Part shown: in pieces, positions 29,694 through 59,240 of the stretch
Position numbering within the stretch: the stretch's first letter is position 1
How the letters are laid out: each line of letters begins with the position of its first letter
Source of the DNA: Deltaproteobacteria bacterium
GTDB lineage: Bacteria > Myxococcota > Myxococcia > SLRQ01
Direction of reading: 5' to 3'
Length of the DNA: 64,000 nt
Assembly: GCA_029210625.1 (NCBI GenBank)
Contig: JARGFU010000001.1
Span: 389,806-453,805 of the forward strand
The notes under the pieces: model-generated
The model's input: only the letters and a program-made list of their open reading frames with translations
Told to the model about the DNA's origin: nothing
Databases searched by the model: none
Position numbers and translations under genes: made by a program

Positions 29694-29894
29694 TCAGGGG
29701 ATCGGGCACTGGATCGCCGCGTAGATCGACCCGTAGTAGGTGTTCATCGCCTCGAGGAGGTCGATCAGGAAGGGCCAGGAGAGGGCCCCGCCCCCGAGGA
29801 TCATCGCGGAGATGATCGCGTACTCGGAGGAGGCCTGCCCCGCCTCGACGGCCGCGCCGGCCTTGCGCCAGAGCTCACGCAGCCGGGAGATCAC
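29694..29894 (-). CDS. Flp/Tad-type small prepilin-like protein
   Basis: 66 residues beginning with GTG at 29894, which overlaps the stop of the gene before it (GTGA). It has a short basic head (ISRLRELWRKAGAAVEAG), then QASSEYAIISAMILGGGALS. A Gly followed by a segment with Glu at position +5 and Tyr at +6 is the class III (Flp) prepilin cleavage motif, and the hydrophobic stretch follows directly. The tail has one Cys (AAIQCPIP). It is therefore a likely pilin or pseudopilin processed by a TadV/PilD-type peptidase that is not in the window. Confidence 0.75.
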   Translation of the reverse strand: MISRLRELWRKAGAAVEAGQASSEYAIISAMILGGGALSWPFLIDLLEAMNTYYGSIYAAIQCPIP

Positions 29895-30145
29895 GGCTGC
29901 TCTCCCTGGCAGTTGCCCTTGGAGGAGCACTTCTGCTTGCACTTCGCCTCCACGGTCTTGCAGGCGCCCTTGCACTTGCCGGCGCCGCGGCCCGCGTACT
30001 CGTCGCAGGCCTCCTCGCACTTCTCGGTGCGCTCCTCGCAGCGGACCTCGCACTCCATCACGTCGTCGTAGGCCATCGCCTGGCCGGGGAGCACGAGTGC
30101 GCCGGCCAGGAGGCCAAAGATCGCCAGAGCTCGAATCGTCTTCAT
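29891..30145 (-). CDS. Small secreted protein with repeated CX3C motifs
   Basis: 84 residues with a cleavable signal peptide (MKTIRALAIFGLLAGALVLP then GQAMA). The mature 60 residues hold nine cysteines; eight fall in four CX3C motifs (CEVRC, CEEAC, CKGAC, CKQKC), spaced as two helix pairs, plus one late Cys. The composition is Lys/Glu-rich. Such twin-CX3C helical hairpins are held by disulfides in other systems (for example small TIM chaperones), but no homology is implied. It lies between the pilin-like gene and a membrane protein gene in the Tad-like cluster. Confidence 0.8.
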   Translation of the reverse strand: MKTIRALAIFGLLAGALVLPGQAMAYDDVMECEVRCEERTEKCEEACDEYAGRGAGKCKGACKTVEAKCKQKCSSKGNCQGEQP

Positions 30146-30161
30146 ACCTTCCTCCAGGAGT

Positions 30162-31007
30162 TCAGTTCGCCACCGCCGGGGGCGCGGCCCCCGCGGGCTT
30201 GCTGTGATCGGATAGCAGAGAGAAGACCTGGATGCCCGGACGCTGGGAGAGCGGGTCGTGGCGCAGGCTGACCTGCGCCTCCAGCTGGCTCTTCCGCGCC
30301 TTGATCCAGGCGTTCTTTCCGTCCTTGCCCATCGTCACGCTCGGCCGCTGCCAGCCTCGTTCGACGAAGGCCGCCTCGTAGTATTCAATCAGCTGCCCGA
30401 GGGTCAGATCGGGCACCGTGGCCGTCACCCACTGCTGGCCGATCCCCTCGACGCCGGCGCCCATCACCGCGGTGTGGGTGGCGCTCGGCGGGTGGGGTAG
30501 GACCTCGGGCACCCGGGCCTCCTGCATGCTCCGCATGACGTCCGGGGCGCTGGAGGTCGAGACGAAGACCAGGGTGGAGTCGTCCCCCTGCGGGATCAGG
30601 GTGGCCGTGTGCTGCAGGTCGGTCATCTTCTCGCGGTAGCCCACGTAGCCGATCCCGCTCTCGAAGCGCTTGGAGACCAGCTGCATCCCGGCCTCGGAGA
30701 GCCGGGTCTCGTAGAACTGCTGCACCACCTCGATCGGGTCGGGGGCGGTGAACCATCCGGTGGACATGGGGACGCCCTGGACGTTCATCTGATCGCTGAA
30801 GGCGCTCAGCTGTGCGTCCGCGTAGGCGGGCATGCCGCTCTCCTTCTCCGAGATGGGGCGCGGGGGCACGTCGAGGGGCTCGAGGGCGCCGACCTCCAGG
30901 ACCTCCAGCTCGGCGGGCCCCGTCTCCGAGCGCAGGAAGCCGAGCCCCACGCCGAGGACGGTGCCGGCCACTGCGGCCAGGAGAATGGTTCGAAGCCAGC
31001 CCGGCAT
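30162..31007 (-). CDS. Membrane-anchored protein in the Tad-like cluster
   Basis: 281 residues with one N-terminal transmembrane segment (LRTILLAAVAGTVLGVGLGF). The rest is predicted extracytoplasmic and consists of two similar alpha/beta units: PIEVVQQFYETRLSEAGMQL near residue 92 and LTLGQLIEYYEAAFVERGWQ near residue 198, each followed by beta strands. The duplicated 'YYExxxxxxGW' pattern suggests an internal repeat. No family assigned. It lies 10 bp after the TadE-like gene. Confidence 0.75.
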   Translation of the reverse strand: MPGWLRTILLAAVAGTVLGVGLGFLRSETGPAELEVLEVGALEPLDVPPRPISEKESGMPAYADAQLSAFSDQMNVQGVPMSTGWFTAPDPIEVVQQFYETRLSEAGMQLVSKRFESGIGYVGYREKMTDLQHTATLIPQGDDSTLVFVSTSSAPDVMRSMQEARVPEVLPHPPSATHTAVMGAGVEGIGQQWVTATVPDLTLGQLIEYYEAAFVERGWQRPSVTMGKDGKNAWIKARKSQLEAQVSLRHDPLSQRPGIQVFSLLSDHSKPAGAAPPAVAN

Positions 31008-31017
31008 GACGTCCCTG

Positions 31018-32133
31018 CTAGCAGCTCTCCGCGTCCTTGCAGCCCATGTACCACTTGCCGCGGTCCGAGTTCTTGTAGGTGTTCTCGTACTTGTCGCCGT
31101 CGCCGTCCTTCCAGGGCGTGACGAAGTACTTCCGGTTCTGTCCCTCTTCGCTGACGTTGTTCTTGGGCGTCTGCGAGCTGCTGCCCGAGCCCACGCCGTA
31201 GCGCTGCTTGAGCTGGCCGTGGCGGACGGCCAGGTCGGCCTCGAAGAGGTTGTCGCCGAAGAACCAGCCGTAGCCCGGCATCAGGAGCTCGTTGCCCCAG
31301 GCCTGGGCCAGGAAGGCGATGGAGCCGCCGAAGTAGCCCCAGTAGATGATGCTGCCGGTGTAGGCCTTGTCGACCCGGTCGAAGAAGTTCCCCGACTCGT
31401 TCTCCTGGTCCTGGTCGGCCACGTCGTTGAGCGCCCAGGTGTCGGTGAGGATCGCCGTGCGGTAGGGCGGGTACTGGAAGAAGCCGCCGCTCACCCCGTG
31501 GGCGTCACCCTGGAGACCGTTGTTGACGTGGTGGACCTCCGAGAGCCCGCCGGCGCCCTTGTCGTCGCCCTCCAGGATGTCGTGCTGCGAGAACTGCTGC
31601 ATGAACTTCGAGGAGATCCGGTCGTTGATGACCGAGAGCTGGGCCTTGCAGGTGAAGAAGCCTCCGTGCGCGCCGTTCTGGATCTCCCCGATCAGCGCCC
31701 CCGAGGGCCCCAGGAAGTCCATGGGCACGTCGGCGGCGAAGCTGTCGTCGGTCAGCTCGCAGGCGACCTGGTTGGCCGACCCCCCGCCCTGCAGCCAGCA
31801 CTGGTGAGCCGAGAGGGCGAGGTGGTGGGTCTCGTCGTCGCAGTCGGTGCCGGCGGAGTAGGCGTTGTAGGCCGCGCTGTGATCGCAGTAGAGGAGCCGG
31901 TTGGCGGCCCCGACGCTGTTGGCGTGGTTGCTGCCCTTCTCGTAGTCGCGGGCGGTCAGGTCCCACTGAGCCGAGATCACCGTCTCCTGCAGGTTCAGCT
32001 TGTAGCGCAGCAGGTCGTCGAGGAGCAGCGCGTAGAGGATCATCGGCACGAAGACGATCATCGAGATCGCCATCTCGACCATCGCGCCGCCGCGCTCGTC
32101 GGTGAAGCGGGAGAGGAGAGGAAGGTATCGCAT
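31018..32133 (-). CDS. TadE-like prepilin-domain protein
   Basis: 371 residues from the ATG at 32133 (a longer start at 32187 adds residues with no support). The N-terminus is MRYLPLLSRFTDERGGAMVEMAISMIVFVPM: Gly, then a segment with Glu at +5, then a hydrophobic helix, the TadE/pseudopilin layout. The large C-terminal region is extracytoplasmic with scattered Cys (YCDH, DCDDE, CWLQG, CELTD, CKDAESC). No known domain. It follows the TadG-like gene by 12 bp. Confidence 0.75.
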   Translation of the reverse strand: MRYLPLLSRFTDERGGAMVEMAISMIVFVPMILYALLLDDLLRYKLNLQETVISAQWDLTARDYEKGSNHANSVGAANRLLYCDHSAAYNAYSAGTDCDDETHHLALSAHQCWLQGGGSANQVACELTDDSFAADVPMDFLGPSGALIGEIQNGAHGGFFTCKAQLSVINDRISSKFMQQFSQHDILEGDDKGAGGLSEVHHVNNGLQGDAHGVSGGFFQYPPYRTAILTDTWALNDVADQDQENESGNFFDRVDKAYTGSIIYWGYFGGSIAFLAQAWGNELLMPGYGWFFGDNLFEADLAVRHGQLKQRYGVGSGSSSQTPKNNVSEEGQNRKYFVTPWKDGDGDKYENTYKNSDRGKWYMGCKDAESC

Positions 32134-32144
32134 GATCGTCTCTC

Positions 32145-33749
32145 CTAGTTCTTGGGAACGGTGGGGATGGCAGAGACAATGGCCCACTCGACCTCACCGG
32201 CGGCCGCCAGCACGATGGCCGCGTCGAGGGTGTCGAAGGGGTGGAGCTTCGCCCGCCAGTAGGGGTTGAAGAGGTTGGGCTGCTCCTTCCAGTCACCCAG
32301 GCGGTGGTAGTAGACCAGCGCCTTGCTCATCGCGCTGCCGGTGCCCGGGGCGAGGCGCACGGTGGCGTCGCCCTGCGCGCCGTGGGTGAGGGTGAGCTCA
32401 CCGGAGTCGGTGATCTCCCAGGGCTTGGCGGCGGACTCACCGATGCCCCGCAGGCGCAGATCCTGGGTGGTGTAGGCGTAGACCGAGGGCTGGCCCCAGT
32501 CGGCGCTCTTCTTGTCGTTCGCCCGGAACTTGATGAAGCAGTTGTTCTGGAAGAGGCAGGAGAAGCCCCCGCCGGCGTTCACCCCGTCGAAGTCGTGGTC
32601 GTCCTCGTGGGCGTCGCTCGGGTCGTGGTCGCCGCCGTTCTCGTCCGAGAAGATCGACGCCTCGTAGGGGAGCATCATCGCGGCGTGGTCCTTCCAGGAG
32701 AAGACCCAGCCGTGGTCGTCGGCGCCGATGGTGGTGCCCTTGCGCATCGAGCGGCCGTCGTGGAGCTGACCGGTGCTCTTGCTGTCGATCAGCTTCGCCG
32801 TGCCGTCGTGCATCAGGGCGATCGACATGCCGTCGTCGGGGACGTCGGTCATGAAGTCGATGTTCCAGGTCGGCGAGAGGAAGAGGAGGGGCAGGAAGGG
32901 CCGCTCGGCGGGCCACTCGGGCCGGGTGCCGTTGGCCACCTCGGCCATCACCTTCGCCCGGTTCTCGTCGTCGACCGAGGGGCAGCCGATGGCGGCGATG
33001 TCGAGGAGGGGCGGCTTCTCGACCGCGCAGGCCAGCTCCCGAACGTTGTAGGCGCCGACGCCCATGGGCAGCTCGGAGGCGTGGGGTGCGTATTGCTCGT
33101 CGGTGTCCCGCTCGGCCCCCGTCTGTCCCTTGAGCTTGGACTGGAAGGAGATCGTCCCGTCGGTGCCCAGCAGGACGTCGGAGGTCCGGGTGAGCATCGA
33201 GAGCTGGGAGAAGTGGATGACGTTGATCATCAACTCCAGCATCTGCATGGCGAAGCGGAAGGAGCTCTCGAGGTCTTTGACGTCGTCCGCCTTCTCGTCC
33301 GCCATGTCGAAGTAGTCGAAGGCGATGCCGATGTCCTCGATGCCCTCGATGCAGTGTTGCACGCAGGAGCAGTAGGTGCAGGCACAGCAGAGGCCGAACT
33401 CGATCGCCGCCATGATCAGGAAGTTGTAGGCCGCCCGCTGGCTCATCGCCGGCACCGAGCTCGCCGCCGACATGTAGGCGTGCAGGCTCATCGCCGAGAC
33501 GTAGGCCGCGGCCATCGCCCGGTTGGTGTAGGCGATGTAGTTGAAGGCCCGCGCCTCCTGGACGGCCATCGAGTAGGCCTGGGCGTCGGCGTAGTTCTGG
33601 ATGCGGATCTTCTCGTGGATGGCCTGGCTGATGTTGAACGAGAACATCAGCATCAGGGCCAGGACGAGCATGGAGCCGGCGCCCAGGGCCAGCGCCTGTC
33701 CGCTCTGGCCGTCCCTGGGATCTCGCAGTGCGTTCTTCAGCATCTTCAT
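32145..33749 (-). CDS. TadG-like membrane-anchored protein
   Basis: 534 residues. The head MKMLKNALRDPRDGQSGQALALG leads into a hydrophobic helix and then IHEKIRIQNYADAQAYSMAV, the TadG/Flp-Tad 'lqnaaDaAA' style region. There is a Cys cluster near residues 115-130 (CCACTYCSCVQHC). The remainder is a large extracytoplasmic region of unknown fold. Start MKM or the next Met; one in-frame stop follows at 32145. Together with its two TadE-like neighbours it probably builds a surface or pseudopilus structure. Confidence 0.72.
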   Translation of the reverse strand: MKMLKNALRDPRDGQSGQALALGAGSMLVLALMLMFSFNISQAIHEKIRIQNYADAQAYSMAVQEARAFNYIAYTNRAMAAAYVSAMSLHAYMSAASSVPAMSQRAAYNFLIMAAIEFGLCCACTYCSCVQHCIEGIEDIGIAFDYFDMADEKADDVKDLESSFRFAMQMLELMINVIHFSQLSMLTRTSDVLLGTDGTISFQSKLKGQTGAERDTDEQYAPHASELPMGVGAYNVRELACAVEKPPLLDIAAIGCPSVDDENRAKVMAEVANGTRPEWPAERPFLPLLFLSPTWNIDFMTDVPDDGMSIALMHDGTAKLIDSKSTGQLHDGRSMRKGTTIGADDHGWVFSWKDHAAMMLPYEASIFSDENGGDHDPSDAHEDDHDFDGVNAGGGFSCLFQNNCFIKFRANDKKSADWGQPSVYAYTTQDLRLRGIGESAAKPWEITDSGELTLTHGAQGDATVRLAPGTGSAMSKALVYYHRLGDWKEQPNLFNPYWRAKLHPFDTLDAAIVLAAAGEVEWAIVSAIPTVPKN

Positions 33750-33755
33750 TCCCCC

Positions 33756-34592
33756 CTAGAGCCAGCGGGCTTCGCAGTCGCCGTTGATGCCCGAGCTGTC
33801 GTTGGCCGGCAGATTGCTCTTGTAGAGGTTGGACTGCATTCGCATCGAATAGGACGCCCGGATCGGCCAGATGTAGATGCCCATCTCGCCGAGCATGTCG
33901 TACATCATCAGGCCGTCCTGCCAGGCCTTCATCCGCCGCTGCATCCCCCGCATCCGGTCGATGGCGGTCTCACCGCCCATGTAGAGGGCGCGGGAGATGT
34001 CCTTGCCCAGGGCGATGTTGTGGAAGATCTGGTTCGCGAAGGGGATCGGCATCCGGTAGTTGTAGGTGACCTGGATCCGCAGCTTGGTGCGGTCGAACTT
34101 CTTCCAGTTGGCGTCGTCACGGTTGGCGACGTTGGCGGTGTTGATCTGGGGATCGTCGAAGTCGACCTCGTTCGTCTTCCACTGGATCGCCGCCTGGGTG
34201 GGGCCGCAGATGGCCACCTCCACGTGCTTGAAGATCGGCGCGTCGAGCATCATCCCGTCGAGCAGCCCGTGCCTGAACCACTTCATCAGGTAGTCCGAGG
34301 GCTCGGTGACCGGGGTGATGACCTCGGTACCGCTGCTGCTCTTCGAGATCAGGGGCAGCAGGGTCCACAGCGCCGTGCGGCGCATCTCGCGCACGTTGGC
34401 GTTGTGCACCGCCCCGGCCCGCACCGCCTTGTAGGCGGCGTACTTGGTCATCAGGCGCGCCTGGTGGATGAGCCCCAGCTGGAGCAGTCCCAGGATCAAG
34501 AAGACGTACATCGGGATGACGATGGCGGACTCGACCATCGCCTGGCCGTCCTCACCCCGCGCGCGACCTCGTCTCTTTCGCATCCAGTTCAT
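33756..34592 (-). CDS. TadE-like prepilin-domain protein
   Basis: 278 residues from the ATG at 34592, preceded by AAGGGGAG 7 bp upstream. MNWMRKRRGRARGEDGQAMVE carries the prepilin-type site G-QAMVES (Glu at +5), followed by the hydrophobic segment AIVIPMYVFLILGLLQLGL. The C-terminal part is soluble and mostly polar. It is the first gene of the reverse-strand Tad-like set, with 195 bp of non-coding sequence before it. Confidence 0.8.
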   Translation of the reverse strand: MNWMRKRRGRARGEDGQAMVESAIVIPMYVFLILGLLQLGLIHQARLMTKYAAYKAVRAGAVHNANVREMRRTALWTLLPLISKSSSGTEVITPVTEPSDYLMKWFRHGLLDGMMLDAPIFKHVEVAICGPTQAAIQWKTNEVDFDDPQINTANVANRDDANWKKFDRTKLRIQVTYNYRMPIPFANQIFHNIALGKDISRALYMGGETAIDRMRGMQRRMKAWQDGLMMYDMLGEMGIYIWPIRASYSMRMQSNLYKSNLPANDSSGINGDCEARWL

Positions 34593-49900: not shown

Positions 49901-51598
49901 CTATCTGGAGGAGAGGGGGGTACCGCCAGGCTTGGTCTTGCTCGCGGCGGGCTCCCCCTTCTTCTCGTCGGTCTTCTTGGCGGGGGCCTTCTTGGCGTCG
50001 GCCTTTCCGGCGCCCCCATCCTTCTTCTTCTCGTCCCGGGAGGCCGTCACGATCTCGCCGCCGGGTGCCTTCGGATCCTCGTCCACCTCGGGGTTCAGGT
50101 AGAGCACCCGGCCGCCCTGGTGGCAGCGCTTGCACATCGCATCCCGGCGCTCGCCCCCCCACCAGAGGTTGGGGTAGGGGCTGCCGTGGGGCTGGTGGCA
50201 GGAGACACAGCCGAGCGCCTGACCGGGACGCTGCGGATCCCTGGGTCCCTTCACCGGATGGGGCTGGCCCGAGAAGCTGGTGAAGATGTGCGAACCCGAC
50301 TTCTGCTTCTCGTGACACCCGATGCAGACCGAGTTGGGCTCCTTCGGGGCGAGCTTCGGATTGTCCCCCCCGTGGGGGTCGTGGCAGATGGTGCAGCCGA
50401 AGCGATCGATGGCGGCGTGCTTCTGCCCCTCGAAGGCGAACTTCAGCTTCGACTCCCCCTCCGCGCCGTGACAGCTCAGGCAGGTCTCCTGACCCTCGCC
50501 GCGGGAGAGGAGCATCGGGTTCTTCGCGCCGTGGGGATCGTGGCAGGCCATGCAGGCGCCTGCCTCGGCTGGGGCGTGCTGGAAGGGGCGGCCGGTGAGG
50601 TCGTCCTCGTGGCACCGGAAGCACAGGCCCGAGCCGTCGGCCTTCAGTAGGGTCTCCCGGTCCTCTCCGTGGGGATCGTGGCACTCGTTGCAGCGCCCGG
50701 TCCGCACGGCCGAGTGAAGGAAGGTGCGCTCGATCTCGTCGTGGCACTCGTAGCAGAGCTCCGGGCGCTTCTTCTTGAGCAGGGCCGGCTGGCCCGCGCC
50801 GTGCGGCCCATGGCAGTTCGAGCAGGTCCCTGCCTCGAGGGCCTCATGAACGACCTCGGCGTCGTTGCGGATCCCCTTGAGGCTGGTCTCGGCGGAGGTC
50901 TTGTTCGCAGCGTGGCAGTTCAGACAGAGGATGTTCCCCGTCTCCCGCAGCAGGGGCTTCTCGTCTGCCGTGTGAGGCTTGTGGCAGGAGAGGCAGCCGC
51001 CTCCCTCCACCGGGTAGTGCTTGACCACGTAGCCGCTCTCGGAGGTGGGCCGCAGGGTCGAGACCTCGTGGCAGGTGTAGCAGAGCTCCTTGCGGCTGGC
51101 GCGCAGCAGGGGTGCGAACTCGGAGGCGTGGGGGTTGTGACAGCCGGTGCAGCGGCCCTCGTCGACCGGCTTGTGGGTCGAGTCGCCCTCGAAGGGATCG
51201 TGGCACTTGGCGCAGATGTCCTGGACCGTCGACTTCTCGAGGTTGAAGGCGTTCTCGCCCCCATGGGGTCCGTGGCAGTTCATGCAACCGTCGAGGAGGG
51301 CCGCGTGGGTCTTGCCCTCGATCCGGGGATCGTCGTGACACCCGAGGCAGACGTCTGGATCCTCGTGGCGCTCGAAGACCAGCCCGGAGCCGCACCGGGC
51401 GGACGCGTCCTCGTTGCCATCGTGGCAGTCCGTGCAGTCCCCATCCTCGAGGGCCGTGTGCTTGTGGACCTGCAGGAGGACGGTCGCGTGGCACCCCTGA
51501 TCGGCGCAGCCTCGCTCCTGAGCCCGAAGCTCGGCCGGTGCGAAGATCGCCCCGAGGATCACCCAGGCACCGATGGCCCCCTTGAGCCCCCTGGCCAT
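49901..51598 (-). CDS. Large multiheme cytochrome c, 18 CXXCH motifs
   Basis: 565 residues from the ATG at 51598 (TGATG overlap with the preceding gene). Signal peptide (ends AELRA), then 18 CXXCH motifs from about residue 54 (CTDCH) to CKRCH, and an unusual CX4CH (CADQGCH) at the first possible site. Many alternate with CHxPHG, the doubled-CXXCH style. Low-complexity C-terminal tail rich in Lys, Ala and Pro (from about residue 515). It is predicted to be a secreted or surface electron carrier that fits the outer-membrane conduit encoded beside it. Confidence 0.93.
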   Translation of the reverse strand: MARGLKGAIGAWVILGAIFAPAELRAQERGCADQGCHATVLLQVHKHTALEDGDCTDCHDGNEDASARCGSGLVFERHEDPDVCLGCHDDPRIEGKTHAALLDGCMNCHGPHGGENAFNLEKSTVQDICAKCHDPFEGDSTHKPVDEGRCTGCHNPHASEFAPLLRASRKELCYTCHEVSTLRPTSESGYVVKHYPVEGGGCLSCHKPHTADEKPLLRETGNILCLNCHAANKTSAETSLKGIRNDAEVVHEALEAGTCSNCHGPHGAGQPALLKKKRPELCYECHDEIERTFLHSAVRTGRCNECHDPHGEDRETLLKADGSGLCFRCHEDDLTGRPFQHAPAEAGACMACHDPHGAKNPMLLSRGEGQETCLSCHGAEGESKLKFAFEGQKHAAIDRFGCTICHDPHGGDNPKLAPKEPNSVCIGCHEKQKSGSHIFTSFSGQPHPVKGPRDPQRPGQALGCVSCHQPHGSPYPNLWWGGERRDAMCKRCHQGGRVLYLNPEVDEDPKAPGGEIVTASRDEKKKDGGAGKADAKKAPAKKTDEKKGEPAASKTKPGGTPLSSR

Positions 51599-52827
51599 CA
51601 GGGAGCGCCTCCCCACCCCGGTCCGAAGTCCGGGACGATGGGACGGTCGGCGGGGAAGGGGCGTGGAGCCCCGCTCGACTCGCCGACCTCCACGACCTTC
51701 CCGTGATCGCAGGGGGTCTCGGGCGGGCAGTAGCGCCCCGGAGCGTGCTCGAAACCGTGGCAGGTCAGGCGGCAGGTCCCCTGCCGGCCGCCGGTGCCGT
51801 CGTATTCCAGCTCGCCCGCCCGGGTCGGCCGGACGATCATCGGATCGAACTCGATCAGGTGATCGTACTCCCGGCTGCCGTGAGCGTTGTGACAGGTGCG
51901 GCAGGAGGTCTGGGCCCGAGGTGAGGTCAGGTGGAGGCGATGCATGGAGAAGCTCTCGTCGGCCAGGATGCTCTGCCGAGCGTGACACCGATAGCAGAGA
52001 CGATAGGAAAGCTCACTCTCTCCGGCAGCATCGACCATGTGGTAGGTCTCGCGCAGCAAGCTCGGGTTCTGGGAGCCGTGGGCGCCCGGCCGATCATCTC
52101 CGCTGCCGTGGCAGTCCAGGCAGGAGAGCTGGCCTCCGGTGCTCCAGGGGGCCCGCAGCGAGGGTGAGTCCACGATGCCCCGTCTTGGCCCCAGGAGCGG
52201 ATGGTAGGAGCGGTTCGCCGGATGGAGCAGGCTCTGGATGTTGCGTGCCCCGACCGGGAGGTTCGCGCTGTCCCCGTGACAACGCAGGCACACGTCGTGG
52301 AGGAAGGCCTCGTCCTTCAGGGTGCTCGGCGCCTGGTCATTGGAGCCCTCGAGCCGCGCGGGCGAACGAAGGGTCCGGTGGGCGTCGTGGCAGTCCAGGC
52401 AGGTGACGTGGCGGGCGAGGTTCGGATCGACCTCGGGGAGCTCCTCGCCCCGCCGGTGGATCTCGGCGGTCCCGAGCTTGTGACCATAGGGGGCCTCGAA
52501 CTGCGGCCTCAGATCCTTCAGCCGACGGAGGGACTCCGGCGCGATGTGGTCTCGCATCCGGGGATCGACTCCGCCGTGGCACATCAGGCAGGTCTCCTCG
52601 GTGCTCTCCATCAGCATCGGAGTTCCCGACCGCCCGTGCCCCCGATGACAGGTTCCACACCCCCGGGTCAGCACCCGCTCGTCCAGGTGAGGTGCCTCTC
52701 CCTTCTCGGCCGCGGCAGGCATCGACGACAGGCTCAGCCCACCGAGCAACGCCAGGAGGACGCCCCTCGGCCACCCGGAGCCGTCTCGCCGGAGCGGATC
52801 AGAGCTTGTGGCAGACGGTGCAGACAT
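51598..52827 (-). CDS. Multiheme cytochrome c, 7 CXXCH plus one CX3CH
   Basis: 409 residues from the ATG at 52827, which overlaps the tetraheme gene by 29 bp. A signal peptide lies near residues 18-40 (GVLLALLGGLSLSSMPAAA). Motifs: CGTCH, CLMCH, CLDCH, CLRCH, CLDCH, CYRCH, CRTCH, and CRLTCH as a CX3CH variant. It is exported and could sit in the periplasm or in the barrel, as in porin-cytochrome complexes where a small multiheme protein lies inside the barrel. The start is less certain: MSAPSATSSD gives a long n-region. Confidence 0.88.
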   Translation of the reverse strand: MSAPSATSSDPLRRDGSGWPRGVLLALLGGLSLSSMPAAAEKGEAPHLDERVLTRGCGTCHRGHGRSGTPMLMESTEETCLMCHGGVDPRMRDHIAPESLRRLKDLRPQFEAPYGHKLGTAEIHRRGEELPEVDPNLARHVTCLDCHDAHRTLRSPARLEGSNDQAPSTLKDEAFLHDVCLRCHGDSANLPVGARNIQSLLHPANRSYHPLLGPRRGIVDSPSLRAPWSTGGQLSCLDCHGSGDDRPGAHGSQNPSLLRETYHMVDAAGESELSYRLCYRCHARQSILADESFSMHRLHLTSPRAQTSCRTCHNAHGSREYDHLIEFDPMIVRPTRAGELEYDGTGGRQGTCRLTCHGFEHAPGRYCPPETPCDHGKVVEVGESSGAPRPFPADRPIVPDFGPGWGGAP

Positions 52828-53479
52828 CGGAGAAGCTCGCCTTCCGGTAGAAGTGGACGCCACTGCCCGCGAAGTTCGAGTCGTCGTGGGGGTCGTGACA
52901 GGTGGTGCATTGGAGCTGATCGCTCCCATCGAGCCGCACCTCGGAGTCCGCCTTCATGGACTCCAGGGGGACGAGCAGGCTGTCCCGGGCGTTGTTGGCC
53001 GAGATCTGCCCCGGGGTGACCTGCATGGAGACGGGATGAGAGCCCGAGAGATCATGCCCCAGGGCCGAGGCCGACTTGGAGGGGATCCGGCCGGCCTCGG
53101 TCCCGATCATCGAGATGGTCTCCCGCTGGCTCTTGACGGCCCCCAGGGCGATGGTCCCATCGTGGCAGGCCATGCACAGGCGGCTGGTCCCCGTGAGGGG
53201 GCGGACGGGCTCGCGGTCCTCCGCGTCGCTCGAGGGAGAGGTGTACTGCAGGAAGGGCTTGTCGGGCAGGTCCCGGTTCCAGAGGGGCACCTCGGCCTTC
53301 GAGGTGTGCGGCGTATGGCAGAAGACGCAGATCCGGGTCTCGTTGGTGGCCCGGATCGGGCCCGGACCACTGACGGAGAGGTTGTGACGGGTCTCCGCGA
53401 TCGCGGCCGGACCAGCCCGCAAGACTGCCGGGACGGCCAAGAGGGCCGCGAAGGTCAGGATGAGGCGGAGGTGACTCAC
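52799..53479 (-). CDS. OmcE-like tetraheme cytochrome c
   Basis: 226 residues, GTG start at 53479 with GTGA overlap. Signal peptide, then four CXXCH motifs: C51-H55 (CVFCHTPH), C102-H106 (CMACHDG), C191-H195 (CTTCHDPH), C220-H224 (CTVCHKL). Non-motif His residues H32 (RHNLS), H58, H148 (SHPVS) and H198 can serve as second axial ligands, giving bis-His hemes; H142 and H209 are also present. The order and spacing match the 58450-59115 protein, so the two are paralogues. Confidence 0.9.
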   Translation of the reverse strand: MSHLRLILTFAALLAVPAVLRAGPAAIAETRHNLSVSGPGPIRATNETRICVFCHTPHTSKAEVPLWNRDLPDKPFLQYTSPSSDAEDREPVRPLTGTSRLCMACHDGTIALGAVKSQRETISMIGTEAGRIPSKSASALGHDLSGSHPVSMQVTPGQISANNARDSLLVPLESMKADSEVRLDGSDQLQCTTCHDPHDDSNFAGSGVHFYRKASFSDVCTVCHKL

Positions 53480-54528
53480 GGGTCGTGGATCTCCAGATAG
53501 CGCAAGATCTGGACTCGCTGATTAGCACTGTCGGCGATGAAGATCCTCCCCTCTCCATCGACGGCGATCCCCGAGGGCAGATCCAGCTGCGCCGGCCCCG
53601 AGCCGGTCTCGGCGAAGTAGAGGAGGAGGGTGCCGTCCCGCTCGAAGATCTGCACGTTCCCGAAGAGCGCGTCGGCCACGAAGAGGTGCCCCTCCTCGTC
53701 GAAGGCGATGCCCTTGGGATGGGCGAAGGTCCCGGCGCTGTCCCCCGGCCGGCCCACCGAAGCCAGGAAGGCGCCCTCCAGGTCGAAGCGCTGGATGCGG
53801 CCGTTCATGGCGTCGACGACCCAGGGATCCCCATCGGGATCGAAGGCCAGGTAGGTGGGGAAGTTCAGCTGTCCGGGCTCGCTCCCCCGGGACCCGAAGC
53901 TCCGGATCAGGTTCAGATCGTCCCCGAGGACGAAGACCTGATGGGCCAGCGTGTCCACGACGAAGATCTCCCGGGTCCGGGGGTGGACCGCGACTCCGGT
54001 CGGGCGCTCGAAGGACTCGAGGACCTCGGCTTCTCCCTCTCCCCCCGGATCGATCCGGGCCAGCAGCCCCAGGCTGGAGTCGGTGACGAGCAGGCGTCCC
54101 TGCCGGTCCAGGGCCACCCCCATGGGGGAGACGAGCCGGTGCGTGCCGATCGCCTCGATCCTGCGCACCTTCCCCAGAGAGGTCTCGAAGATGAACAGGG
54201 CGGATTGACCCGGATCGCTCACGACGATGGTTCCCCGGCCGTCGACCGCCACCCCCGCCGGGCGCACGAGCGTCTGGGGCTCCTTGCTCCCGAGGAAGAC
54301 CCTGCCGAGCCAGTCCAGCGCCCCCCTGGAGGCCACGATCTCCTCGGAGGAGCGGAGGCTTCCGACCTGGACGATCCTCGCCTTCGCGGGGGGCTTCGGC
54401 CAGGCCGGCGCCTCCCCCCACCGGTCTCGGGGAAGCTCGGGCATCCGCCCGTGACCGCAAGCGGTCAGCAACAACGCGAAGGTCAGCAGGAGGCGTCGAG
54501 CGCCGGTTTCGAAGCTAGAAGGAAGCAC
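53476..54528 (-). CDS. NHL-repeat beta-propeller lipoprotein
   Basis: 350 residues, GTG start at 54528 with a 14-bp overlap into the barrel gene; lipobox LLTAC. Six NHL-type blades are visible by their G-x-A-x-D-x-x-G-x-[IL]-x-V-x-D pattern (VRPAGVAVDGRGTIVVSDPG, FERPTGVAVHPRTREIFVVD, LDLPSGIAVDGEGRIFIADS). It lacks the acidic tail of 48443-49858. It is predicted to be lipid-anchored in the outer membrane, probably on the surface or periplasmic face. NHL proteins accompany filament-forming cytochromes in Geobacter, which supports an assembly or anchoring role. Confidence 0.88.
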   Translation of the reverse strand: MLPSSFETGARRLLLTFALLLTACGHGRMPELPRDRWGEAPAWPKPPAKARIVQVGSLRSSEEIVASRGALDWLGRVFLGSKEPQTLVRPAGVAVDGRGTIVVSDPGQSALFIFETSLGKVRRIEAIGTHRLVSPMGVALDRQGRLLVTDSSLGLLARIDPGGEGEAEVLESFERPTGVAVHPRTREIFVVDTLAHQVFVLGDDLNLIRSFGSRGSEPGQLNFPTYLAFDPDGDPWVVDAMNGRIQRFDLEGAFLASVGRPGDSAGTFAHPKGIAFDEEGHLFVADALFGNVQIFERDGTLLLYFAETGSGPAQLDLPSGIAVDGEGRIFIADSANQRVQILRYLEIHDP

Positions 54529-56314
54529 CGAAGCTCCTTCGCAGATCGATCAACAGCACCTGCGTGCGGCCGGGAAGTCCCAGCTGGTTGGTGAGGCTGA
54601 GCCGGTAGGCCGCGCTGAGCACCAGGGAGCGGATCCGCCAGCGCAGGGAAAGGGTCGTGTCGAAGGAGGTCCGGGTCCCGGCCCCCACGAGGACCACCCG
54701 CCAGCCGAGCTGCCCCCCCAGGGTCAGGGTCCGGTAGGGCAGCCAGGAGAGGCCCGCCGAGGCGACGGCGGTGTTGGTGGTCTGGGCAGCCCGGGAGGAG
54801 TGGATCGTGGACCACCCCAACCGGCCGTTCAGCTTGAGCGCGTACTGGAAGTCCCTCCTCCCCCCCACCCAGGTGTCGAAGCGAGACTGCCGGTCGGGGA
54901 GGAAGCCCTGGGGGCCGCCGCTGCGCCTGGAGTGGGAGAAGCGGGTCGTGCCGTAGGCCTGGATCCGGGCCGGGAGGAGCCCGGTCCAGTTGCCCGCCAG
55001 GTTGTAGGCCGCCGTGGTGCTGCCGAAGCTCGAGCGATCGGTTGCGTTCTCGATCCCGGCGTTCAGGGCCAGGTCGTGCCCCCTCGCCAGGGGCATCCAG
55101 TGGTTGGCATGGAGGCCGTTCGAGACGATGATCCCGGCCTCTCCCGGATCGGCCTGGGCGACGCCCGCCCGGAAGGTCTCGGAGAGGGAGGTCCGATGCG
55201 CGCCGAAGCTCTCGTTCCAGGAGGTGCCCAGGGAGAGGACCTCCTGGGTGCGCGAGCGCAAGGGGGCCCCTTCCGCGAAGCGGCTCTGATCCACGTTCAG
55301 CATGGACCGGAAGCTCCAGGCGTCGGAGTACTGGTAGCCGCCGAAGGCGCTGGCGTTGTGGCTGGCGCTGCCGAAGAGGGACTCGCCCTGGAAGGCGTAG
55401 CTCGCACTGGTAAAGAAGCGCTCCTCGGGCTCGTAGCGGAGGTGGGCGCGGGCGCTGTAGCGGCGGTTCTCGAAGCCCTCCATCCGGGTGTTGCGCAGGT
55501 TCCCGTCGAGGGCGAGGCGCAGCCGGCTGCTCGGGTTCGCCGCCCCCTGCAGGTTGACCGCCTCGATGACCATGGTGCGGCTCTCCACCGCCCCGGTGAG
55601 CGAGTTGACCCGATCCTCCTTCCGCTCCCGGATGCGGTACTGCGCGAAGATCCGGGAGGCGGCGTCGTTGTGCATCAACTCGAAGGAGCCGAGGCGCATC
55701 CGGCCGGCGAAGTCCTGCCCCCGGCGCAGGCCGGTCTGATCGGGCAGGAAGACCGAGTCGGAGTGCATGACGAAGCTGTGCTCGGCGAGGTTCAGCCAGA
55801 GCCGGGGGAAGAGCCGGGGCGCCAGGAACTTCCAGGAGAGCCCCAGGGTGCGCGAGCGATAGTCCTGCCCGGGGAGGGTCGTGGTGGAGAGGACGCGCTG
55901 GCGGCTCGCGAACTCGAGCCGGAGGGGGAAGACACTCACGGGCAGGAGAGCCAGCTCGGCCTCGAAGCTCGCCAGCCGGCCGGGAGCATAGTGGTCCGGG
56001 GAGAAGCGCTGGAGGGTCCCCGCCTCCAGGCCGAGGCGGACCTGGGCGAAGCGGGGCCGCCAGATGTAGCCTCGCCCGCTCCCCTCGGCGAGCTCCGAGA
56101 GGAGCGTGCTGGTGGAGCGGTTCGGCCCCAGCCGGGTCTCGTAGCCCTGGAGGGAGAGGCGCAGCGCGCCGTTGGCGCTGAAGCCCTCGATCATCCGCTC
56201 GCTCCGGCGAGACCCGGCGGCGCTGGCGGGGGCGGGCCAGACGCCGGCCGCCACCAGGGCCGCCACCAGGGCGGGCCTGAGCGTGCGGAGAGCTCGTGGA
56301 AGGAAGCCGCTCAC
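54515..56314 (-). CDS. Outer-membrane beta-barrel of the cytochrome conduit
   Basis: 599 residues, GTG start at 56314 (GTGA overlap). Signal peptide with ASA|AG. The rest is made of amphipathic strand-length pieces (RAHLRYEPEERFFTSASYAF; LNGRLGWSTIHSSRAAQTTN; SLRWRIRSLVLSAAYRLSLT) and ends LLIDLRRSFGASF, a C-terminal Phe typical of barrels. Its size is that expected for roughly 20 or more strands. Beside multiheme genes it is the candidate porin of a porin-cytochrome complex. It is not clearly MtrB. Confidence 0.85.
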   Translation of the reverse strand: MSGFLPRALRTLRPALVAALVAAGVWPAPASAAGSRRSERMIEGFSANGALRLSLQGYETRLGPNRSTSTLLSELAEGSGRGYIWRPRFAQVRLGLEAGTLQRFSPDHYAPGRLASFEAELALLPVSVFPLRLEFASRQRVLSTTTLPGQDYRSRTLGLSWKFLAPRLFPRLWLNLAEHSFVMHSDSVFLPDQTGLRRGQDFAGRMRLGSFELMHNDAASRIFAQYRIRERKEDRVNSLTGAVESRTMVIEAVNLQGAANPSSRLRLALDGNLRNTRMEGFENRRYSARAHLRYEPEERFFTSASYAFQGESLFGSASHNASAFGGYQYSDAWSFRSMLNVDQSRFAEGAPLRSRTQEVLSLGTSWNESFGAHRTSLSETFRAGVAQADPGEAGIIVSNGLHANHWMPLARGHDLALNAGIENATDRSSFGSTTAAYNLAGNWTGLLPARIQAYGTTRFSHSRRSGGPQGFLPDRQSRFDTWVGGRRDFQYALKLNGRLGWSTIHSSRAAQTTNTAVASAGLSWLPYRTLTLGGQLGWRVVLVGAGTRTSFDTTLSLRWRIRSLVLSAAYRLSLTNQLGLPGRTQVLLIDLRRSFGASF

Positions 56315-57357
56315 TCGACTCCCTCCCGCGCGGGCTTCCCGGCCTTCTCCTTGGCGGCCGGGGGCGGCGCCTCCTCCTGACCGGACCAGGTGGGCCGGAT
56401 GCGCATCCGGAAGCGAGGGGTCGGCGTGGTGAAGCGAGGAATCCGAGACTCGCCGGTCTCGGGATCGATCACGGGCTGGCCGTCGGGGCAGCCGTCCTCA
56501 TCATCGATCCGGTTGATCGTCTCGGGCTCGAAGGGGCAGCGGTCGATGAGGTCGGCCACTCCGTCGGAGTCGTGGTCGACCTCCCGCTCCTTCGCGGTGC
56601 CGTAGATCAGGCCCACGCTCACCCGGAAGCTCGCCGCCTCGGGTCCGATCCCTCCGGTGAGGGCCAGGGAGAGCTGGACGCCCTGACCCGCCTCGTAGGC
56701 CGTACCCGCACTGAAGTGGAGGGCGCCGAGACCGTAGCGCTGGCTCTCGGAGAGACGGAAGCCCACCTCGGCCAGGGGCCGCCACTCGTGAAAGGTCCCC
56801 TGGGCGCCCACCCCGAAGGTGAGACCCCGGCGCTGATCCCCCAGGCGCCCGGTGGCCGCGTCGTAGCCCAGGGAGACCACGCCCTGGAAGGGCGCGTAGC
56901 TCTTCTGCACCACCACCCGCGGCGCGAGGTCGATGGTGCCGGCGACGTAGCGGAGCCCGAAGTCCACGGCCACCCCCGGCCGCAGCGCCTCCTCGTCCAG
57001 GTAGCGCCACTTCAGAGCAGCGCGGACCGCATCGGGACCCCGCCAGCTCTGCTCGTCGCTGCTCGGAGGATCCATGCGAGTCGAGAGGGAGACCTCGCCC
57101 CGCTCGTGGAAGCCCAGCGCGGCCCCCATCGGACCGCCGACGGCCGCCCCGCCTCGCCCGTCGATCACGCCGGCGAACCAGAGCCCGACCTCCATGCGCC
57201 CCTTCTCGACCGTGTCGGCCAGGGGGATGGAGAGGATGCCGCGCCCATCGGCGGGGGTCGCGGCGGCCCGGACCACTCCCGGCACCAGCACGAGCGCGAC
57301 CGCCAACCAGAGCGCTGTCCCTGGGGGTGAGCCCCCTGGCCAACGCGGAGGACTCAC
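56311..57357 (-). CDS. Outer-membrane barrel with thrombospondin type 3 Ca motif
   Basis: 348 residues, GTG start at 57357. Signal peptide; strand-rich region (residues 40-265, such as GLRYVAGTIDLAPRVVVQKS). DHDSDGVADLIDRCPFEPET then DDEDGCPDGQPV follows, the Ca-binding thrombospondin type 3 / OmpA-linker motif. The chain ends Pro/Lys-rich with no OmpA domain. Such linkers normally reach into the periplasm. It is in the middle of the cytochrome operon with 4-bp overlaps on both sides. Confidence 0.82.
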   Translation of the reverse strand: MSPPRWPGGSPPGTALWLAVALVLVPGVVRAAATPADGRGILSIPLADTVEKGRMEVGLWFAGVIDGRGGAAVGGPMGAALGFHERGEVSLSTRMDPPSSDEQSWRGPDAVRAALKWRYLDEEALRPGVAVDFGLRYVAGTIDLAPRVVVQKSYAPFQGVVSLGYDAATGRLGDQRRGLTFGVGAQGTFHEWRPLAEVGFRLSESQRYGLGALHFSAGTAYEAGQGVQLSLALTGGIGPEAASFRVSVGLIYGTAKEREVDHDSDGVADLIDRCPFEPETINRIDDEDGCPDGQPVIDPETGESRIPRFTTPTPRFRMRIRPTWSGQEEAPPPAAKEKAGKPAREGVE

Positions 57358-58331
57358 CGAGCCTCCGGCTCCCCGGACGACTGCTTCACCTCGAACTTCG
57401 CCCTCGCCTCCTCGATCAGCGCGAGCCGCAAGGCGGCCCTGCGCGACTTCTCGAGCTCGGCCGAGATGGCTCCCCGGACCTGCTCGAAGGCGAGGGGCTG
57501 CGGCGGCTTCTTCCCCAGGAGCTTGACCGCGAAGTAGCCCTGGAAGGCCTTGATCGGGCCGGCGACCTTGCCGACCTCCAGCTTCTCCACGGCCTCGGCG
57601 AGCTCGGGGACGAGGGCGCCGGTGTGGGCAAAGCCGAGATCCTTGATCTCGGCCATGGTGTAGTCCTTCGCCAGGGCTTCGATGCTCTCTCCGGCCCGCA
57701 TCCGCTCGGCGATGTTCGCCGCGGTGGCCTGGAGGGTGTCCCGGTAGCCTTGCTGGCTCAGCCGGCCGGGATCGAGCTTGACCAGGGCCGCGACCACATG
57801 GAAGGAGGCGGGCATCTGGTAGCGCTGGCGGTTGTCGTCGAAGTGCTTGCGAATTTGGGCCTCCGGGAGCTCACCGGCCCTCCGGGCCTCGGCCTCGACC
57901 AGGGCGTCCGCCTGGACCTGCCAGGCGAGCTGGCGGCGGTAAAAGGCCGGGTTGGTCTTCGCCCGCGTCAGGAGCTTCTCGAAGCCCCGCGCCCCGCCAT
58001 AGGACTTCTCCACCGCCGCGTAGCGGGCCGCCACCCGGGTCTCATCCAGTGGCAGCTTCCTCCGAGCGGCGAGAGAGGCGAGGAGCATCTCCACGGAGAG
58101 CTGTCCGGCGACCTTCTTGCGGGCCGCGGCCACCGCCGCCGCGTCCGGGGTCTTGTGGAAGCTGTTGAGGGTGAAGTCCAGGGCGATCGCCCCCTGGAGC
58201 TCCTCCTCGCTGACCTTCAGGGCTCCGACCTCGAGGGCCGGCGTTGCCGCCGGAGCCGCCCGTCCCGCCGCCGGCAGGAAGGCGGCGGCCAGTGCGAGAG
58301 TGAGACCGGAGAGCGGTGCTCGCATTCCCAT
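57354..58331 (-). CDS. Parvulin-type peptidyl-prolyl isomerase
   Basis: 325 residues with signal peptide (PLSGLTLALAAAFLPAAGRA). An N-terminal SurA/PrsA-like helical region (YRRQLAWQVQADALVEAEAR) precedes a rotamase domain at residues 175-285 (SFHVVAALVKLD, then GFAHTGALVPELAEAVEKLE, then PIKAFQGYFAVKLLGK). It catalyses prolyl isomerisation and may chaperone outer-membrane or secreted proteins. The first gene of the dense operon after the OmcE-like gene. PPIases are repeatedly found beside filament-forming cytochrome genes. Confidence 0.9.
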   Translation of the reverse strand: MGMRAPLSGLTLALAAAFLPAAGRAAPAATPALEVGALKVSEEELQGAIALDFTLNSFHKTPDAAAVAAARKKVAGQLSVEMLLASLAARRKLPLDETRVAARYAAVEKSYGGARGFEKLLTRAKTNPAFYRRQLAWQVQADALVEAEARRAGELPEAQIRKHFDDNRQRYQMPASFHVVAALVKLDPGRLSQQGYRDTLQATAANIAERMRAGESIEALAKDYTMAEIKDLGFAHTGALVPELAEAVEKLEVGKVAGPIKAFQGYFAVKLLGKKPPQPLAFEQVRGAISAELEKSRRAALRLALIEEARAKFEVKQSSGEPEAR

Positions 58332-58378
58332 GATGTGCTCCCGAGGGGCGAAGAAGTGGAATCCGGGGAATACAGGAA

Positions 58379-58406
58379 CGCCGCCGAGGTGGACACCCCG
58401 GCGGCG
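58379..58406 (-). promoter_or_regulatory. Strong hairpin between cytochrome and operon
   Basis: CGCCGCCG and CGGCGGCG (8 bp, extended by G-rich/CACC pairs) form a hairpin in the 118-bp gap between the OmcE-like gene and the isomerase gene. There is no T tract beyond TTCCTGTATTCC, so it is more likely an attenuator or a 3'-end stabiliser than a clean terminator. It would let the cytochrome be made in excess of the rest. Confidence 0.55.
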
Positions 58407-58449
58407 CTCCGAAACTGCCAGTCCATGGCTTGCGCCACGGGTGCTGCCG

Positions 58450-59115
58450 CTACTTCATGTGGCAGGCGGTGCACATGGCGGAACCGGCGTTGGTGACCCG
58501 GTAGAAGGTCGGCAGGTTGCCCTCGTGCGGGTTGTGGCAGGAGGCGCACTCGACGGTGTTGCCGGTGAAGAGGCGGATGCCGGCGCCGGTCACGGCCGCG
58601 ATCGAGTTGAAGGCGGTGTCGAGGGTGTTGTCGTAGGTGATGCCGATCGGGTGGTCGTTGCTCAGGTCGGTGGCGACGTTGGCGACGCCGGTCAGCAGCT
58701 CGGTGCCCGCGGTCCAGGTCCAGGCCATGTTGGCGCCGCCGAGGGTGTAGTTACCGGAGCCCGGAGCGTTGACCAGGGTGTCCATCGCGACCGTGCCGTC
58801 ATGGCAGGTGAGGCAGGCCATGGACTCGTTCGCCGGAGCGAGGGCGACGGCCATGTCCATCGTGGAGCTGGAGTACATGGTGTAGATCGCGCCGGTCGGG
58901 CCCTTGTTCCACAGGGCGACGCCGATGCTGATGTCGGCGGCGTGAGGGGTGTGGCAGAAGACGCAGACCTCGTCGGTGTCGGCAACGTAGAAGTTGTTGA
59001 CCGCGCCGGTGGAGGAGAGGTTGTGGGGGGTGTTGACGACGTTGTCCTGAGCGAAGGCGGAGGTGGCGAAGCCGATGGCGGCGACGGCGACCAGGATGCG
59101 ATTGAGATGCTTCAT
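58450..59115 (-). CDS. OmcE-like tetraheme cytochrome, candidate filament subunit
   Basis: 221 residues from the ATG at 59115, chosen because GGGGAGGAAACACA stands before it. Signal peptide ends AFA (residues 20-22). Hemes: C51-H55 (CVFCHTPH), C101-H105 (CLTCHDG), C190-H194 (CASCHNPH), C215-H219 (CTACHMK). Exactly four other His lie in the mature chain: H31 (NTPHNLSSTG), H58, H155 (SNDHPIG) and H197, enough to give every heme a second His. OmcE of Geobacter sulfurreducens is a tetraheme protein of similar size that polymerises into filaments. The sigma54-type promoter and strong ribosome site suggest high, regulated expression. Confidence 0.9.
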   Translation of the reverse strand: MKHLNRILVAVAAIGFATSAFAQDNVVNTPHNLSSTGAVNNFYVADTDEVCVFCHTPHAADISIGVALWNKGPTGAIYTMYSSSTMDMAVALAPANESMACLTCHDGTVAMDTLVNAPGSGNYTLGGANMAWTWTAGTELLTGVANVATDLSNDHPIGITYDNTLDTAFNSIAAVTGAGIRLFTGNTVECASCHNPHEGNLPTFYRVTNAGSAMCTACHMK

Positions 59116-59225
59116 TGTGTTTCCTCCCCGGAAAAACGGGGCTTTACGTGGTGTTTTTTGGAATTTCTTCCGATTCGACTGCCCGAGGAGTCCGGGAGCG
59201 GGCCCTCGACGCACCCTGTCCCTAA

Positions 59226-59240
59226 GCAATGGTCATGCCA
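59226..59240 (-). promoter_or_regulatory. Sigma54-type promoter of the OmcE-like gene
   Basis: On the reverse strand TGGCAT-GACCA-TTGC with GG and GC 10 bp apart, as in the minus-24/minus-12 consensus. The predicted transcription start near 59214 gives a leader of about 100 nt ending in a small CCCCG/CGGGG hairpin just before the ribosome site. Confidence 0.7.

What the first reader, a model, noticed from the sequence alone, without database searches (positions are those of the whole stretch)
29694..34592. Stripped-down Tad-like pseudopilus cluster with a twin-CX3C protein
Four proteins have a prepilin-like or TadG-like head (QASSEY, QAMVES, GAMVEM and QALALG after Gly), followed by large unknown ectodomains, yet there is no TadA/B/C, CpaB or secretin nearby. 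A tiny secreted protein with four CX3C motifs is coupled by GTGA overlap to the pilin-like gene. This could be a new pseudopilus or a surface fibre with a disulfide-bonded partner.
Basis: partly seen in the sequence, partly recalled or inferred. Interest (0 to 1): 0.6.

Follow-up and report, generated by a model that had tools for sequence, protein, structure and literature searches.

The report
Tip3 cassette of a Kil pilus
The cluster encodes the interchangeable tip of a prey-contact (Kil-type Tad) pilus known from the predatory bacterium Myxococcus xanthus, and in this bacterium and many relatives (though not M. xanthus itself) it carries an extra, uncharacterised small secreted protein that looks like a helical hairpin stapled by four disulfide bonds.

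Summary
The genes exist as described, but this is not a stand-alone pseudopilus. It is an orthologue of the M. xanthus tip3 cluster: the TadE/F/G-type minor pilins (KilL/M/N) plus the adapter pilin KilO, which cap the Kil pilus (Herrou 2025, PMC12075869). The missing machinery is elsewhere in the same genome: peptidase, secretin and FHA-fused ATPase on C5; CpaB and two TadB/C-type platform proteins beside a Tip4-type cassette on C7; a KilP-like major pilin on C1; a T3SS export apparatus on C27. In trees the window cassette falls in the Tip3 clade with M. xanthus (100/99 and 100/100 support). Two cassette genes are not mentioned in that paper's main text: a membrane-anchored tandem-repeat protein (30162-31007), and the CX3C protein (29891-30145), found in 22 of 32 complete Tip3 loci scanned but lost in M. 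xanthus. The latter has eight ordered cysteines and a predicted helical hairpin; cysteines 3 and 6 were lost together in two lineages, supporting a C3-C6 disulfide. Its strong homologues occur only in Tip3 cassettes or at contig ends. Verdict: known kind, with an undescribed accessory subunit whose function (structural partner or cargo) is open.

The parts
33756..34592 (-). TadE-type minor pilin with large ectodomain (KilL/KilM type; which of the two not resolved), 278 aa
   Evidence: PF07811 E=1.9e-9; Tip3 clade in trees
32145..33749 (-). TadG-like large minor pilin (KilN-type, predicted distal tip domain), 534 aa
   Evidence: PF13400 E=2.6e-4; homologous to M. xanthus L104 525-aa protein
31018..32133 (-). 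TadE/F-like minor pilin (the other of KilL/KilM), 371 aa
   Evidence: prepilin motif G/GAMVE; aligned with the paralogues of C4 and C7; orthologues in the same order
30162..31007 (-). P281: N-terminal membrane helix plus two tandem alpha/beta domains; conserved member of Tip3 and Tip4 cassettes, uncharacterised
   Evidence: halves homologous, hhalign E=4e-9; AF2 mean pLDDT 86; no Pfam
29891..30145 (-). 84-aa secreted protein with four CX3C motifs; predicted helical hairpin stapled by four disulfides
29694..29894 (-). 66-aa Flp-type pilin, KilO-like adapter; 46% identical to the 59-aa M. xanthus protein of L104
34788..35858 (-). PilT/PilU-family ATPase upstream; neighbour, not part of the conserved cassette
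   Evidence: TIGR01420 E=9e-122; not adjacent to the Tip3 cassettes read in L064, L068 and L074

Best explanation
The segment is the Tip3 cassette of a Kil-type Tad pilus in a Myxococcia bacterium outside Myxococcaceae. The TadE-, TadF- and TadG-like pilins are inserted in the inner membrane, cleaved by the KilA-like peptidase, and assemble into a heterotrimeric spearhead. The 66-aa Flp (KilO-like) couples it to the end of a KilP-like filament, which is pushed out by the FHA-ATPase, platform and secretin encoded elsewhere. The large TadG-like ectodomain probably contacts the target cell. P281 is a membrane-anchored periplasmic helper. The CX3C protein is exported and folds as a helical hairpin with pairs C1-C8, C2-C7, C3-C6 and C4-C5; most likely it is an accessory subunit or stabiliser of this particular tip. 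Shown by sequence: gene content, order, orthology, presence of the machinery, and paired cysteine loss. Inferred from M. xanthus genetics: tip and adapter function and predation. Inferred only: the roles of P281 and the CX3C protein.
For: Gene order E-G-F-P281-(CX3C)-Flp recurs across Myxococcia. The window falls in the Tip3 clade with M. xanthus AM003 (100/99; 100/100). AM003 has four TadE-type places and two strong adapter-type Flp hits, one in cluster II and one of 59 aa in the L104 cassette; this matches KilK and the 59-aa KilO of tip3 (PMC12075869). Its 97-aa Flp with Ala96 matches KilP, and the window genome has an 85-aa homologue. Core: KilA-like peptidase, secretin and FHA-T2SSE on C5; CpaB, two T2SSF proteins and an FHA protein on C7. 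SctV/U/R/Q plus an SctT/FliR-family protein on C27. 22 of 24 strong CX3C hits lie about 4 kb downstream of a TadE-type cassette hit, the other two at contig ends.
Against: Tip3 assignment of L104 rests on the 59-aa Flp and elimination; MXAN locus tags could not be looked up. No complex prediction was possible. No phenotype is known for this organism, so predation is extrapolated. M. xanthus Tip3 lacks the CX3C gene, so it is not universally needed. The KilP homologue in the window genome was a weak profile hit (E=0.024), identified by its sequence.
Confidence: 0.88

Rival explanations
1. The CX3C protein is not a structural subunit but a small secreted cargo: a disulfide-stapled hairpin peptide that the Tip3 pilus delivers to, or releases at, the target cell.
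For: Its non-Cys positions diverge fast: 20% mean pairwise identity against 55% for Flp, 53% for TadE and 47% for TadG in the same 12 loci. It is patchy, with about three losses, and tandemly duplicated in one genome (L148). The architecture resembles Pfam Toxin_13, the nemertine helical-hairpin neurotoxin B-IV (2 of 22 members, best E=1.9e-5; PDB 1vib E=0.4).
Against: The resemblance is Cys spacing, probably convergence. There is no immunity-like partner gene. M. xanthus Tip3 works without it. A Cys-clamped spacer also diverges fast.
Confidence: 0.25
2. A separate, new pseudopilus or surface fibre with its own assembly.
For: No core Tad gene in the window.
Against: A Kil core and a KilP-like pilin exist elsewhere in the genome. 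The cassette is orthologous to a described tip. RcpC/CpaB is single-copy.
Confidence: 0.04
3. The cassette works with the neighbouring PilT/PilU ATPase, as part of a type IVa pilus.
For: A PilT/PilU-family gene lies 196 nt upstream on the same strand.
Against: The pilins are Tad/Flp type. PilT is not next to the orthologous cassettes read. PilT homologues are found throughout T4aP genomes.
Confidence: 0.03
4. A Tip3 cassette as described, but used in this lineage for adhesion or surface sensing rather than predation.
For: No phenotype is known. Tad pili elsewhere serve adhesion, and the 2025 paper predicts similar tips in non-predators.
Against: Three cassettes, an FHA-fused ATPase and a T3SS export apparatus are present, as in predatory myxobacteria.
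Confidence: 0.2

Closest known systems
M. xanthus Kil system Tip3 (KilL3/M3/N3) with adapter KilO (PMC12075869)
   Same: TadE/G/F-like trio, Flp adapter in the same cluster, scattered away from the core, same clade in trees
   Different: An extra CX3C gene between P281 and the Flp; window Flp 66 aa instead of 59; about 42-46% identity for the TadE protein
Canonical Tad/Flp locus (Caulobacter cpa, Aggregatibacter tad)
   Same: TadE, TadG-like and Flp pilins, CpaB, secretin, TadB/C-type platform, A24 peptidase
   Different: Genes split over several loci; FHA-fused ATPase; several interchangeable TadEFG cassettes
Helical-hairpin disulfide peptides (nemertine neurotoxin B-IV, plant alpha-hairpinins, small Tim twin-CX3C)
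   Same: CX3C-based helical hairpin stapled by disulfides
   Different: No demonstrable homology; bacterial Sec-type signal; genetic link to a pilus tip

Membership tests
Kil Tip3 cassette | KilL/M/N (TadE/F/G-like) trio in one cluster | tested here: met
Kil Tip3 cassette | Flp adapter (KilO) encoded in the cluster | tested here: met
   46% identical to the 59-aa Flp of M. xanthus L104
Kil Tip3 cassette | groups with M. xanthus Tip3 rather than Tip1/2/4 | tested here: met
   Tip3 identity of L104 by 59-aa Flp and elimination
Kil Tip3 cassette | prepilin cleavage motif in all minor pilins | tested here: inconclusive
   G/XXXXE in three of four; the TadG-like protein lacks the Glu, as in M. xanthus
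Kil Tip3 cassette | heterotrimer forming an alpha1N bundle docked on the pilus | not testable with these tools
   no complex prediction offered
Kil system | FHA-fused ATPase, short secretin, A24 peptidase in one cluster | tested here: met
   C5; whether the secretin lacks the N0 domain was not tested
Kil system | CpaB and two platform proteins next to Tip4 and KilK | tested here: met
   C7 (L005); same layout as M. xanthus L121
Kil system | KilP-like major pilin | tested here: met
   G000:C1:161925, 85 aa
Kil system | partner needleless T3SS* | tested here: inconclusive
   SctV/U/R/Q and an SctT/FliR-family protein on C27; absence of needle not tested
Kil system | contact-dependent prey killing | not testable with these tools
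   needs a cultured strain
Canonical Tad locus | TadZABC, RcpABC and pilins in one locus | tested here: not met
   split over C1, C4, C5, C7
Toxin_13 / neurotoxin B-IV | significant sequence relationship | tested here: not met
   window protein has no Pfam hit; 2 of 22 members best E=1.9e-5, PDB profile E=0.4; no fold match

The most novel reading that the evidence does not exclude
The CX3C protein is an ancestral subunit or delivered cargo of Tip3, a four-disulfide helical hairpin exposed at or released from the end of a predation pilus, with presence and absence tuning which targets a species can engage.
Probability: 0.3. Interest if true: 0.7.

Novelty: new variant of a known kind. Interest (0 to 1): 0.45.

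Why it matters
It extends the Kil Tip system, known by experiment only in M. xanthus, to a separate Myxococcia family. It also names two conserved cassette genes not discussed in the main text of the tip paper. The CX3C gene is missing from M. xanthus, so M. xanthus genetics cannot reveal it; Corallococcus, Archangium, Hyalangium and Citreicoccus can. A tip-specific disulfide hairpin is a concrete candidate for how one tip differs from another, an open question of the 2025 paper.

Tried and rejected
PF04964 (Flp_Fap) finds none of the Flp pilins in this genome; a profile of cassette Flps was needed. Pfam and NCBIfam do not know P281 or the window CX3C protein. PDB sequence and fold searches gave nothing significant for P281 (best E=1.1e-3, TM about 0.2) or for the CX3C model. 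An odd/even Cys count in the TadF-like pilin as a sign of an intermolecular disulfide was checked and is confounded by phylogeny. The PilT link was rejected. An early reading that L074 carries the CX3C gene was wrong; it does not. A literature search for twin CX3C with Tad pilus found nothing.

Full report
Observation. The six - strand ORFs are real. The TadE domain of 33756-34592 is significant; the Tad/TadG head of 32145-33749 is just under its cut-off; the other four proteins match no Pfam family above noise. Both recurrence in other genomes and sequence conservation show that the small ORFs are genes.

Where the machine is. A TadE search of the whole genome gave four places: one in the window, one on C4 and two on C7. 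C4 and C7 carry paralogous cassettes with the same order TadE, TadG-like, TadF-like, P281, Flp (on C7 a 283-aa secreted protein gene lies between P281 and the Flp); only the window copy has the CX3C gene. C7 continues into CpaB/RcpC, two T2SSF proteins and an FHA protein. C5 carries an A24 peptidase, a secretin, an FHA-T2SSE ATPase and an FHA protein. This is the split layout and the FHA-fused ATPase reported for the M. xanthus Kil system (PMC8460266). An 85-aa Flp on C1 resembles the 97-aa M. xanthus pilin that matches KilP in length and Ala96. A T3SS export apparatus lies on C27, and FHIPEP is single-copy in the genome.

Which tip. Herrou et al. 2025 (PMC12075869) describe four scattered KilLMN tip clusters in M. 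xanthus, with the adapter KilK in cluster II and KilO, a 59-aa Flp, in the tip3 cluster. In M. xanthus AM003 I find four TadE-type places: one beside CpaB and the platform proteins with a long Flp, two without P281 or Flp, and one (L104) with P281 and a 59-aa Flp. A tree of 66 TadE proteins places the window in the clade of L104 (100/99) and the C7 copy with cluster II. A TadE+TadG tree gives a Tip3 clade at 100/100. The window cassette is therefore a Tip3 orthologue in a family other than Myxococcaceae.

The CX3C protein. In the named-genome scan, 22 of the 32 loci that hold both P281 and Flp carry a small Cys-rich secreted gene between them. The profile found 24 strong hits in 58 related genomes. 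Twenty-two of them lie about 4 kb downstream of a TadE hit and the other two at contig ends. The pattern is C-x3-C-x6-C-x3-C, a loop of roughly 9-14 residues, then the same again. Of 22 aligned proteins, 15 keep eight cysteines and 7 lack exactly the third and sixth; two more (L085, L094) show the same pattern by eye. The six-cysteine state arose twice on the tree, in a Corallococcus clade and in Pyxidicoccus. Paired loss implies a C3-C6 disulfide, hence the ladder C1-C8, C2-C7, C3-C6, C4-C5 in an antiparallel hairpin. AlphaFold2 gives two helices, 29-50 and 52-75, at pLDDT about 85-91 over most of their length. Non-Cys positions diverge strongly (20% identity). The gene was lost about three times, including in the M. 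xanthus clade.

P281. It is present in Tip3, in the Tip4-type cassettes and in the C4 copy, but not in the two other M. xanthus tips. It has one N-terminal helix and two tandem domains: the halves are homologous (E=4e-9) and the model is confident. No known family matches.

Mechanism. By M. xanthus genetics, tips prime KilP polymerisation, adapters seat them, KilA matures Tip2-4, and Tip3 needs the T3SS* to kill (PMC12075869). Applying this here is inference from orthology. The roles of P281 and the CX3C protein are open; I favour accessory subunit over cargo, with about one chance in four for cargo.

Novelty. The cassette is a known kind. The CX3C subunit and P281 are not mentioned in the main text of the describing paper as far as I could search it; its supplement could not be read, so they may be shown there.

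Noticed in passing
G000:C3:73000-76000 (L147 1433-1930, - strand): A lipoprotein-like protein with a second eight-Cys CX3C hairpin lies outside the Tip cassettes of the same genome.
   Followed up: partly
L105: A record titled Comamonas sp. KCTC 72670 carries a Tip3 cassette nested in the Myxococcus clade, so the record is probably mislabelled.
   Followed up: partly
L082, L086, L095: Three Myxococcus species carry tandem Tip3-type cassettes; the second copy in L082 shows no P281 hit.
   Followed up: partly
L006 10006-14812 (G000:C4): A third tip cassette that does not group with any of the four M. xanthus tips; it groups with copies from other Myxococcia families and may be a further tip type.
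   Followed up: partly
window 49901-59229: Cluster with multihaem cytochrome-like proteins: 18 CxxCH in 49901-51988, four each in 52799-53479 and 58450-59229.
   Followed up: no
L148 5026-5823 (G004): Two tandem CX3C genes in one Tip3 cassette.
   Followed up: no
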